Assembly (NCBI GenBank): GCA_015494675.1
Contig: WGAW01000060.1
Location: 1-5,513, forward strand
Origin: Hydrogenimonas sp.
GTDB taxonomy: Bacteria; Campylobacterota; Campylobacteria; Campylobacterales; Hydrogenimonadaceae
Reading direction: 5' to 3'
DNA length: 5,513 nucleotides
The notes beneath the pieces were generated by a model. It was not told the origin of the DNA and did not search any database. It saw only the letters and a list, made by a program, of their open reading frames with translations. The position numbers and the translations under genes were made by a program. Every line of letters starts with the position of its first letter. Positions within the stretch are counted from its first letter, which is position 1. Below, piece after piece: positions 3,750 to 5,245 of the stretch.

Positions 3750-3919
3750 GATGGCAAGAGTCGTAGAGACCGGAATAACCGATGAGAGCGAGATCAGACA
3801 AATACTCGAAGAGGAGGGGTGTTTCAATATCTTCAGGTGGAGTGACGCCGCTTCCACTTCATACTCCGAGCACACCCACCCGCACGAGGAGGTGCGCTGG
3901 GTGCTTTCAGGGGTTCCAG

Positions 3920-3936
3920 GAGCCTGTCGGATTCAT
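3920..3936 (+). repeat. Left terminal inverted repeat of the MITE
   Basis: GAGCCTGTCGGATTCAT pairs with the right end at 4063-4079 at 16 of 17 positions (C/T difference at position 4). Confidence 0.88.
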
Positions 3937-4062
3937 GCAAGATTGGCTGCAAAATCCACTCTTTTGTCCTATTTTCGGCTCCTTTTCGTTAAATAGCTAT
4001 GGCTATTCGCCTCAAACGAGCCAAAAATATGCCTAAAAGATTGAATTTTTCGCTTCAATCCG

Positions 4063-4079
4063 ATGAATCCGACAGACTC
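4063..4079 (-). repeat. Right terminal inverted repeat of the MITE
   Basis: On the minus strand this reads GAGTCTGTCGGATTCAT, differing from the left end at one base. It is followed directly by CTAG, the intact target-site copy. Confidence 0.88.
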
Positions 4080-4083
4080 CTAG
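4080..4083. repeat. Target-site duplication CTAG, right copy
   Basis: CTAG at 4080-4083 corresponds to CCAG at 3916-3919 left of the element. Keeping one CTAG copy gives the in-frame codon CTA (Leu) of the ancestral cupin. The left copy would carry a single T-to-C change. Confidence 0.65.
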
Positions 4084-4216
4084 AGATTACGGAGGGAAAA
4101 AGGCGCCTGCGGCTGCATCCGGGCGACAGGCTGGAGAGCTCGGCAAATACTCCACATTCGGCATACGTGCCCGAGGATGTCGTCTACATATGCGCCAGCC
4201 GCAGGCCGAAAGAGAG

Positions 4217-5020
4217 TTAACCGAGCCTCTTTTCGACCCTTTGAAGTATCTGCTTCATCTGCTCTATCTCGCCTCTGAGGCGCTCTATCTCGCTTATCGG
4301 TTCTTCACTCTTCGACTCCGCCTTTTCAGGCTCTTTGTCATCATCTTTTATGGCGAAGATCGCGTCGACGATAATACCGATAAGAAGGTTCACCATTATG
4401 AAGGTCGATATAAGGACGAAGGTTACAAAAAAGACCCACGCACCCGGAAACTGTTCCATCACCGGCCTGGCAATACCCATAGACCAGCTCTCAAGCGTCA
4501 TCACCTGAAAGAGTGTATACATAGAGGCTCCGAGTGTTCCGAACCACTGCGGAAACGCCTCACCGTACATGGAGGTGGCCATGATCGAAAAGACGTAGAA
4601 GATAAGCAGCAGCACCAAAGATACCGAGCCTATGCCGGGAATTACGCTGATCAGCGCTCCTATTACCTTTCGCATCTGCGGAACGATCGTAAGAAGCCTG
4701 AAGAGCCTCAACACCCTGAGGGCTCTTAAAATTGCGAACTCTTCACCGGCGGGGACTAAGCAGATTGCCACGACAGAAAAGTCAAAAAGGCTCCACGGGT
4801 CTTTGAAAAAGGCCTTTTTATGCACATAGATCCTCATGGCGATCTCTACGGTAAAGATAGCTATGACCAGACCGTCCAGAAAGAGCAGCAATCCGCCGAA
4901 ATTGCTCATAATACTCTTCGATGTCATCAGACCAAGGGTTATACCGTTGAAGATGATCATTGCCGTTATGAAATTTTTGAACCTGGCAGACTCTACGACA
5001 GCTTCGACTCTTTTGTACAT
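4217..5020 (-). CDS. Bacterial voltage-gated sodium channel (BacNav, NavAb-like)
   Basis: This 267-residue homotetrameric ion channel subunit has six membrane segments. S1-S3 carry N25, E59 and D80. S4 carries gating arginines R99, R102, R105 and R108 in [14 protein letters not shown]. The S4-S5 linker is [17 protein letters not shown], and the pore filter TLESWSM (175-181) is the Na+-selective BacNav signature, with E177 as the selectivity glutamate. S6 ([20 protein letters not shown]) leads to an acidic neck and a C-terminal coiled coil (about 240-265, [18 protein letters not shown]). As I recall NavAb, filter and arginine numbering are identical. Differences include M32, D49 and S150. The start is ATG 5020, with GGAGG at 5029-5025; an upstream TTG at 5035 would place the ribosome site inside the gene. 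Its stop overlaps that of the cupin remnant by four bases. BacNav channels have been linked to motility, pH and Na+ homeostasis; the role here is unknown. Confidence 0.95.
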
Positions 5021-5104: not shown

Positions 5105-5245
5105 ATGAAAGCGATCTTTTGGTTTATATTATTGTTGTTAACAGAACCCGTAGTTCGGCAGGGGGTGAGCGGCCCTGCAACTCCCCGAAGCTTCGAAATC
5201 CAAGATTTCGAGACTCTTTTACGCACTCTGCGTAAAACCGGTTAA
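5105..5245 (+). other. Possible 46-codon reading frame in the leader of the cytochrome gene, doubtful
   Basis: ATG 5105 to TAA 5243-5245 would encode 46 residues, starting MKAIFWFILLLLTEPVV and ending LLRTLRKTG. The hydrophobic start resembles a truncated signal sequence. The frame has no convincing ribosome site (only GAAGA 13 bases upstream), and its second half is occupied by perfect hairpins, which better explain the sequence. It could be a leader peptide, a remnant or chance. Confidence 0.15.
5144..5237 (+). other. Array of compact hairpins upstream of the cytochrome gene
   Basis: Within 94 bases there are four consecutive stem-loops. They are GAAC/GTTC (5144-5156), GCAGGG/CCCTGC (5158-5178, 9-nt loop), TCGAAATC/GATTTCGA (5193-5211, 3-nt loop) and TTTTACGC/GCGTAAAA (5217-5237, 5-nt loop). 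The last two are perfect 8-bp stems only 5 bases apart. None is followed by a T tract, so they do not look like terminators. They could be a structured 5' leader of the cytochrome mRNA, a small RNA, or a REP-like palindromic repeat. I do not recognise a known riboswitch class. This is the main content of the 242-bp gap 5021-5262. Confidence 0.5.

What the first reader, a model, noticed from the sequence alone, without database searches (positions are those of the whole stretch)
3916..4083. A 160-bp MITE with CTAG target duplication inside a cupin gene
The sequence shows 17-bp terminal inverted repeats with one mismatch, arms of identical length (80+80) symmetric about the exact midpoint, and CCAG/CTAG flanks. 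Removing 164 bp restores the cupin frame across motif 1 and motif 2. Together these are hard to explain other than by transposition of a non-autonomous palindromic element. I do not recognise it as a named family, so it may be an undescribed MITE of this lineage.
Basis: partly seen in the sequence, partly recalled or inferred. Interest (0 to 1): 0.75.

Follow-up and report, generated by a model that had tools for sequence, protein, structure and literature searches.

The report
A 160-bp MITE splitting a cupin
A short piece of mobile DNA without a gene of its own has jumped into, and split, a small gene of a bacterium related to Hydrogenimonas; related copies, with ends like those of a known class of jumping gene, sit in other groups of bacteria.

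Summary
Window 3920-4079 is a 160-bp near-palindrome with 17-bp ends (one mismatch), flanked by CCAG/CTAG, that splits a Cupin_2 gene. Two relatives have the gene uninterrupted; the window is exactly 164 bp longer. It is a MITE, but not of this lineage alone: full or near-full copies lie in six of 398 genomes of the order searched, parts in three more; copies lie in 20 of 40 Desulfuromonadales-type genomes, the starting genome included, and, by covariance model, in 48 of 398 Pseudomonadota genomes. Length, midpoint core and inner motifs are shared between phyla. Ends and site match IS1182-family insertion sequences, one of them, apparently intact, in a genome holding the window's subfamily. 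Most likely it is moved in trans by IS1182-family transposases; this was not observed. Two corrections: the family is cross-phylum, and a plain CTAG duplication is not favoured, since in 130 copies the outer flank bases depart from CTAG 84 times, the inner 24 times, and only two copies have equal non-CTAG flanks. An IS1182-linked 160-bp MITE is in print for an archaeon (PMC3852290, passages).

The parts
3920..4079 (+). 160-bp MITE (miniature inverted-repeat transposable element); 3918-4081 if the AG/CT dinucleotides belong to the mobile unit
   Evidence: Inverted repeat, DNA fold, empty sites, aligned full-length copies in three phyla
3920..3936 (+). left terminal inverted repeat GAGCCTGTCGGATTCAT
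   Evidence: 14 of 17 bases as in the left end of the IS1182-family element in L357 and also in that of L266
4063..4079 (-). right terminal inverted repeat (reads GAGTCTGTCGGATTCAT on the - strand)
   Evidence: 15 of 17 bases as in the left end of the L357 IS and of the L266 IS; the end plus CTAG matches each of these two over 22 bases at 91%
3916..3919 (.). left flank CCAG (CTAG-type insertion site)
   Evidence: in 130 copies both flanks are CTAG in 67
4080..4083 (.). right flank CTAG
   Evidence: in 130 copies both flanks are CTAG in 67
3983..4016 (+). central conserved core TTTTCGTTAAATAG-(CTATGG)-CTATTCGCCTCAAA with a short hairpin at the exact midpoint
   Evidence: Alignments A1 and A2; mean identity of the core between phyla 0.66-0.81 against 0.52-0.57 for the middle of the arms
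3751..3915 (+). N-terminal half of the split cupin gene (its frame stops inside the element at 3994-3996)
   Evidence: the intact relative L001 is Cupin_2 PF07883, E 2.4e-8
4084..4220 (+). C-terminal half of the split cupin gene, open from an ATG at 3999 inside the element

Best explanation
Window 3920-4079 is a non-autonomous transposable element (MITE) that was mobilised in trans by an IS1182-family DDE transposase and inserted at a CTAG-type tetranucleotide in a Cupin_2 gene of a Hydrogenimonas-like Campylobacterota bacterium, splitting the gene. Shown: a discrete insert (net gain 164 bp), empty sites in two relatives, many dispersed full-length copies in other genomes, and end sequence and CTAG-type flank shared with IS1182-family elements. 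Inferred: that an IS1182-family transposase binds the SAGNCTGTCSGA ends and moves the element; that the conserved midpoint hairpin and inner motifs serve transposition (binding sites or strand pairing) rather than the host; that the cupin is inactive.
For: Empty sites in L001 and L004 with exactly the length difference of insert plus four bases. Full or near-full copies in six of 398 genomes of the order of G001 (G185, G206, G051, G174 at 87-95% identity; G347 80%; G419 82% over 137 bases with decayed ends), plus parts or a deletion derivative in G291, G237 and G173; the other 11 of the 20 genomes reported match over only 23-36 bases. 20 of 40 genomes, G006 included, match in the relatives search of G006. 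In single-contig genome G040 the end motif occurs 66+62 times against 1+0 for the reversed control, and 42 of 50 candidate copies differ from their consensus by 0-7 bases, which suggests recent amplification. G185, with two copies of the window's subfamily, also has an apparently intact IS1182-family element (NF033551, 365.6 bits with its neighbours in the frame, cut-off 270; Pfam DDE_Tnp_1 and DUF772) flanked CTAG|GAGTCTGTCGGGCTCA...|CTAG. A second, in G369, has ends GAGTCTGTCGG and CTAG flanks. Elements on plasmids that encode IS1182-type transposases (most so annotated, some unannotated) have SAGNSTGTCGGR ends and CTAG-type flanks: 5 of 6; 10 of 10 Komagataeibacter/Acetobacter copies (at 9 sites) and 4 of 5 others. 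The MITE on a Pseudomonas plasmid (L081) abuts a remnant of an IS1182-type transposase (tblastn to ISAzo1's, E 2e-21). The bare motif CTAGGAGNCTGTCSGA in viral contigs hit 28 contigs; 7 of the 16 with at least 245 bp on the inner side, and 3 of 12 with less (weakly, E 0.002-0.009), show IS1182-like transposase. Closest end matches found: window and other copies of its order to the G185 IS and equally to the Methylobacter IS (15 of 17); the CAGCCTGTCGGAC subfamily of G006 to ISAzo1 and the P. putida IS (15 of 17).
Against: No whole genome is held for the window, so copies and a partner IS in its own genome could not be sought. G185 is the only genome of the order found to hold both: the G185 transposase was found in 4 of 398 genomes (G057, G185, G246, G369), of which only G185 is among the MITE carriers. 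Among MITE-carrying Desulfuromonadales-type genomes PF13751 gave no match in 9 of 14 and 2 of 5. No longer element with the MITE's ends was seen in 20 fetched regions around ends of G040 that lacked a listed partner; the list showed only the first 100 of its 128 motif places. Nine of the 16 viral contigs with enough DNA show no such transposase. The interior of the MITE has no match better than E 0.13 in 32 IS loci, some incomplete. Flank behaviour differs: 2 of 10 IS1182 copies show equal non-CTAG flanks, i.e. a real 4-bp duplication, against 2 of 130 MITE copies.
Confidence: 0.85

Rival explanations
1. The element is a MITE, but its partner belongs to another DDE family with YTAR or CTAG targets (for example the IS5 group), and the likeness of the ends to IS1182 is a relic or convergence.
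For: Several MITE-carrying genomes gave no PF13751 match. A G039 element whose best NCBIfam model is IS5 (NF033581), with IS1182 second, also uses CTAG/CTAA/TTAG sites and ends CAGGCTGTTGAAAA. The flank pattern of the MITE differs from that of the IS copies examined.
Against: The closest end matches found (15 of 17) are to IS1182-family elements, one of them in a genome with the same MITE subfamily. The end motif by itself retrieves IS1182-like transposases in 10 of 28 viral contigs.
Confidence: 0.09
2. The unit is primarily a structured RNA or regulatory element (terminator, small RNA, protein-binding site) whose spread is incidental.
For: 38 consensus pairs with 94.8% of cells paired and 88 cells changed on both sides, 0 of 500 shuffles reaching either; the interior is conserved between phyla.
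Against: Only two weak Rfam matches, both below gathering scores. It splits the window's cupin, and 28 of 129 joined sites are open through at least 110 of 120 codons (no control run), so some other copies seem to lie in genes. Arms of a palindromic mobile element can change together without any RNA, and related sequences exceed the shuffles easily. Flanks show a preferred insertion site.
Confidence: 0.05
3. The insert is conserved coding or intergenic sequence, or a chance palindrome, not an insertion.
For: An open frame runs from 3999 in the element into the cupin C-half.
Against: Two relatives lack it at the exact site, and homologous copies lie at other sites in three phyla.
Confidence: 0.01

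Closest known systems
IS1182-family MITEs of Methanosarcina acetivorans (partner ISMac2), Kamoun et al. 2013, PMC3852290 (passages incl. part of Table 4 seen)
   Same: 160 bp, 14 copies, inverted repeats 26 bp, direct repeats 4 bp, IS1182 partner; the passages say the new MITEs share little more than their ends with their partners
   Different: An archaeon; its sequence was not fetched, so homology of the interior to the present family is untested; the same table lists a second, 169 bp, with direct repeat 0
IS1182-family insertion sequences (ISAzo1 in L265; the IS in L266, L267, L357, L368; ISPse1 in PMC3281130, table row seen: ends 16/16, 4-bp repeat)
   Same: For the sequences compared here: ends SAGNSTGTCGGN, CTAG-type site
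   Different: About 1.4-1.65 kb with a transposase; MITE interior not found in them; some copies show equal non-CTAG flanks
Chunjie MITE of Geobacter uraniireducens (Chen et al. 2008; paper not held, nothing of it seen; known here through the review PMC10969869, passages)
   Same: MITE of a Geobacter (Desulfuromonadia by recall), many copies, size variants, mostly intergenic
   Different: 178-235 bp per the review; its sequence could not be compared
IS1272 (IS1182 family), PMC5678879 (abstract and passages seen)
   Same: IS1182-family element reported to insert without target duplication; palindromes as targets
   Different: It is reported to replace a target inverted repeat; at the empty sites seen here a 4-base site is kept in the best-aligned cases and no larger loss is evident there

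Membership tests
MITE | Short (under about 500 bp), no transposase gene, terminal inverted repeats | tested here: met
   160 bp, 17-bp ends with one mismatch, no frame in it longer than the short ones listed
MITE | Discrete insertion with an empty site in relatives | tested here: met
   L001 and L004; sites of G006 copies L112 and L114 are empty in relatives
MITE | Several dispersed copies in one genome | tested here: met
   Met for relatives: 51+44 left-end matches in G006 against 2+0 in the control, 66+62 end matches in G040, two each in G185, G206 and G051. Not testable for the window's own genome
MITE | Target site duplication | tested here: inconclusive
   67 of 130 copies have CTAG on both sides; 2 have equal non-CTAG flanks; outer bases depart 84 times, inner 24; 12 Pseudomonadota copies 6 against 0, 8 short derivatives 6 against 3 with one equal CTGG pair; empty sites too diverged at the four bases to decide
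MITE mobilised by an IS1182-family transposase | Ends shared with an autonomous element of the family | tested here: met
MITE mobilised by an IS1182-family transposase | Autonomous partner in the same genome | tested here: inconclusive
   Met in G185; no NF033551 match at E<=1e-5 in G051, G206, G347, G419, G291, G237 and only a fragment in G174; window genome not held
MITE mobilised by an IS1182-family transposase | Mobilisation in trans observed | not testable with these tools
   Needs a transposition assay
Internal-deletion derivative of an IS1182 element | Interior derived from the IS | tested here: not met
   No interior match better than E 0.13 in the 32 IS loci compared; other IS1182 elements were not compared
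Chunjie | Same sequence | not tested
   Paper not held

The most novel reading that the evidence does not exclude
One ancient 160-bp MITE superfamily has spread through at least Campylobacterota, Desulfuromonadia and Pseudomonadota as a separate mobile lineage with nearly fixed length and a conserved asymmetric interior (midpoint hairpin TTTTCGTTAAATAG..CTATTCGCCTCAAA, CTG and TCGCTnCG motifs). It keeps this interior while its ends differ between subfamilies, each resembling the ends of some IS1182-family element. It inserts as an AG...CT unit into CT|AG-like sites without net target duplication, so the interior is a working part (folded strand or extra binding sites) rather than debris of a deleted insertion sequence.
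Probability: 0.38. Interest if true: 0.68.

Novelty: new member of a known kind. Interest (0 to 1): 0.5.

Why it matters
MITEs are thought to arise by internal deletion of complete insertion sequences (so PMC3852290, passage). A 160-bp element with the same length, centre and inner motifs in three phyla, whose interior is in none of the insertion sequences compared, would instead be a long-lived parasite of IS1182-family transposases with an interior kept by selection or by frequent transfer. That makes two questions testable: what the interior of a MITE does, and how a folded non-coding DNA hitch-hikes on several related transposases. It also warns annotators: copies can split genes, as here.

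Tried and rejected
Rfam at E<=5 gave two weak matches (a snoRNA and a microRNA family), both far below gathering. No tRNA. DNA similarity of the window element in plasmids gave one Pseudomonas plasmid, a true relative; in phages one 32-base match taken as chance. An exact pattern of the core in viral contigs gave 0. Plasmid searches with two Pseudomonadota copies found only that same plasmid, and nothing. A look for a longer element with the MITE's ends in 20 regions of G040 found MITEs, short derivatives and single ends. The two PF13751 proteins of G006 have no such pair of ends. The empty-site comparison in 15 relatives of G006 (13 joined sites given, of 32 prepared, all of these with unequal flanks) confirmed empty sites but could not settle duplication, because the four bases had changed. 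Literature searches by end sequence found six papers with single chance occurrences (one opened: a primer) and none; searches pairing MITE with IS1182 or with Desulfuromonas, Geobacter or Campylobacterota terms showed the Methanosarcina case and Chunjie but, in the listings and passages seen, no description of this family. This covers open-licence PMC only, without supplements. Considered and not favoured: IR-replacing insertion as in IS1272; deletion derivative of one of the IS compared; phage-borne element.

Dropped rows: one search took 136 candidate full-length pairs; one search added the window (137) and dropped 7 that scored low against reference copies. Five of the seven look like chance pairs (scores 0.37-0.43); two (L318 and one pair in L352, scores 0.59-0.60) may be diverged real copies. 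Eight short derivatives were counted apart. Some G006 flanks may be off by a base where an end has an indel; of these 130 copies one had too little flank, leaving 129; the window itself counts there as 'not open', its cupin being shorter than the test. In one search only the best two candidates per genome were scored, so copy numbers are lower bounds. The 12 Pseudomonadota loci are those with the best model scores, so they favour likeness to the model.

Full report
OBSERVATION. The window holds an inverted repeat with arms 3915-3936 and 4063-4084. Within it, 3920-3936 and 4063-4079 are 17-bp inverted repeats with one mismatch; the symmetric match is not reached in 20,000 shuffles. The DNA fold is 3.9 standard deviations better than dinucleotide shuffles. 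The unit is 160 bp; its midpoint is also the centre of a small inner hairpin (read). The flanks are CCAG and CTAG.

INSERTION. The nearest relatives by the neighbouring DTD-type protein (named by eye) are a Campylobacterales MAG (L001, 88%) and Hydrogenimonas-type MAGs. In L001 and L004 the cupin gene follows in the same place without insert; aligned to them the window has exactly 164 extra bases, and removing 164 bases gives one open frame colinear with the relatives. The intact relative is Cupin_2. L002 has only what looks like a cupin remnant and no element, so the gene seems dispensable here (inference). None of G001-G005, the genomes of L001-L005, has a convincing copy (best E 0.02).

COPIES ELSEWHERE. 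One locus of the first search happened to hold a related copy: L030, a Desulfuromonadales MAG. Its genome G006 has 40 scored matches of 73 candidates, all at E<=1e-12, and 51+44 left-end matches with up to 3 mismatches, against 2+0 for the reversed pattern. Of 40 genomes in the relatives search, G006 included, 20 match at E<=0.001. Of 398 genomes of the order of G001, the genome of L001, 20 match at E<=0.001: four carry 87-95% identical full or near-full copies (G185, G206, G051, G174), two 80-82% copies (G347, and G419 with decayed ends), three parts or a deletion derivative (G291, G237, G173), and 11 match only over 23-36 bases. A covariance model from 32 copies found matches in 48 of 398 genomes of the phylum of G439 (Marinobacterium, so Pseudomonadota) at E<=1e-5, most listed ones over the whole model. 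The 12 best loci have ends close to SAGNCTGTCSGA and 159-161 bp, with CTAG on both sides in 8 of 12. A copy is also on Pseudomonas plasmid pMPC6-328K. Names of most host genomes are not given by the tool.

ANATOMY. In 85 copies examined first, lengths were 159 (22), 160 (27) and 161 (36). The alignment of 32 chosen copies has 38 consensus pairs, 16 of them with changes on both sides; 94.8% of cells pair against 85.6% after shuffling, and 88 against 20.5 cells are changed on both sides, 0 of 500 shuffles as high for either; the number of pair types is less striking (36 against 31.0; 10 of 500 reach it). Related copies exceed this control easily, so it shows that the arms change together, not why. 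Between phyla the outer ends (identity 0.81-0.90) and the core (0.66-0.81) are conserved, subterminal DNA is not (0.33-0.44) (18 copies). Internal-deletion forms of 68 bp (six) and 86-87 bp (two) occur in the G040 regions fetched, and one of 86 bp in G291. In G040, 42 of 50 candidate copies differ from the consensus by 0-7 bases, one by 17; the other seven, at 58 or more, are largely the false pairs dropped.

SITE AND FLANKS. Over 130 verified copies both flanks are CTAG in 67. Departures from CTAG fall on the outer two bases 84 times and on the inner two 24 times (binomial p 5e-9); without G006 it is 33 against 4 in 90 copies. Equal flanks other than CTAG occur twice, both in G006. In the 12 Pseudomonadota copies, fetched later, it is 6 against 0. 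A 4-bp duplication at degenerate sites would give equal flanks; duplication followed by decay would hit inner and outer bases alike. The pattern fits a unit AG...CT set into CT|AG-like sites without duplication. Against this: the two equal-flank copies; 8 short derivatives with 6 against 3 and one equal CTGG pair; and insertion sequences with CTAA/CTAA and TTAG/TTAG flanks, 2 of 10 IS1182 copies and 2 of 4 copies of an IS5/IS1182-like element in G039, though two further IS1182 copies have unequal flanks. Empty sites confirm a short site but were too diverged to decide. For the window the codon at the site is leucine in both relatives (CTC, CTG), which fits a CTAG site whose left copy later changed at least as well as it fits a CCAG site.

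PARTNER. In L081 the MITE lies next to a remnant of an IS1182-type transposase, first named by eye and then tested, and shares a CTAG with what looks like its end. Elements on plasmids with IS1182-type transposases, most annotated so and some unannotated, have SAGNSTGTCGGR ends and CTAG-type flanks: 5 of 6, 10 of 10 Komagataeibacter/Acetobacter copies at 9 sites and 4 of 5 others (sites compared in 127). L207 and L237, in MITE-bearing genomes G008 and G013, carry IS1182-type transposases (L207 below, L237 above the NCBIfam cut-off) with CTAG|CAGTTTGTCGGAC at one end; the other end of L207 is less like it. In the window's order, G185 carries both close copies of the MITE and an apparently intact IS1182-family element with ends GAGTCTGTCGGGCTCA and CTAG flanks. 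In 398 genomes this transposase was found in four; G369 has one with both ends, and G057 one end next to a broken gene. The window's right end plus CTAG matches the G185 IS, and equally a Methylobacter IS, over 22 bases at 91%, so the end likeness points to the family, not to one local partner. Viral contigs with the bare end motif carry IS1182-like transposase in 10 of 28 (three of these weakly), including two complete elements of 1,602 bp with flanks; 9 of 16 with enough DNA do not. The interior of the MITE has no match better than E 0.13 in 32 IS loci.

MECHANISM. Most likely an IS1182-family transposase in the same cell binds the ends and moves the element to CTAG-type sites; copies then decay. 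Shown: insertion, copies, ends, site. Inferred: the transposase, the role of the interior, loss of cupin function. The frame after insertion opens again at an ATG inside the element (3999-4220), so a truncated product is possible.

KNOWN OR NEW. IS1182-linked MITEs are in print: 160 bp, 14 copies, 26-bp repeats, 4-bp direct repeats in Methanosarcina acetivorans with ISMac2 (PMC3852290, passages). Whether that is the same family could not be tested. ISPsy32 in Pseudomonas is said to target CTAG, and the IS1182-family ISPsy36 GGCC (PMC8027508, passages). ISPse1 (IS1182) has a 4-bp repeat (PMC3281130, table row). IS1272 of this family is reported to lack target duplications (PMC5678879, abstract and passages). 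Chunjie of Geobacter is 178-235 bp (PMC10969869, passages; original not held). No paper in the searched library was found to hold the end sequences as a repeat family. So: a new family of a known kind, with an unusual breadth. After checking, the confidence and the odds of the novel reading were each lowered slightly (0.86 to 0.85, 0.40 to 0.38), because the end match is shared with a Methylobacter IS and one short derivative has equal CTGG flanks.

Noticed in passing
window 3999-4220: The element supplies an in-frame ATG, so the C-terminal half of the cupin stays open as a 73-aa frame that begins inside the MITE.
   Followed up: partly
L002 3642-4000: A Hydrogenimonas-type relative shows only what looks like a degraded remnant of the cupin, without any MITE: the gene may decay independently in this lineage.
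   Followed up: partly
L334, L335, L336, L245, L249, L252 (68 bp); L255, L259 (86-87 bp); L221 (86 bp): Short internal-deletion derivatives of the MITE that keep both ends; flanks are CTAG on both sides in two of the eight G040 ones and in L221.
   Followed up: partly
L173, L184, L081: Copies that abut another copy, or an IS1182-like remnant, and share one CTAG: the CTAG at one element's end seems to be reused as a target.
   Followed up: partly
L389, L390, L392, L393, L397-L399, L401, L402, L408, L409: Fetched viral stretches that end 95-127 bp inside the IS1182-type end, as if assembly broke at a repeat; limits of the stored data could also explain it.
   Followed up: no
window 5190-5245: Two short adjacent hairpins (CGAAATCCAAGATTTCG and TTTTACGCACTCTGCGTAAAA), seen by eye, upstream of the cytochrome-type gene.
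   Followed up: no
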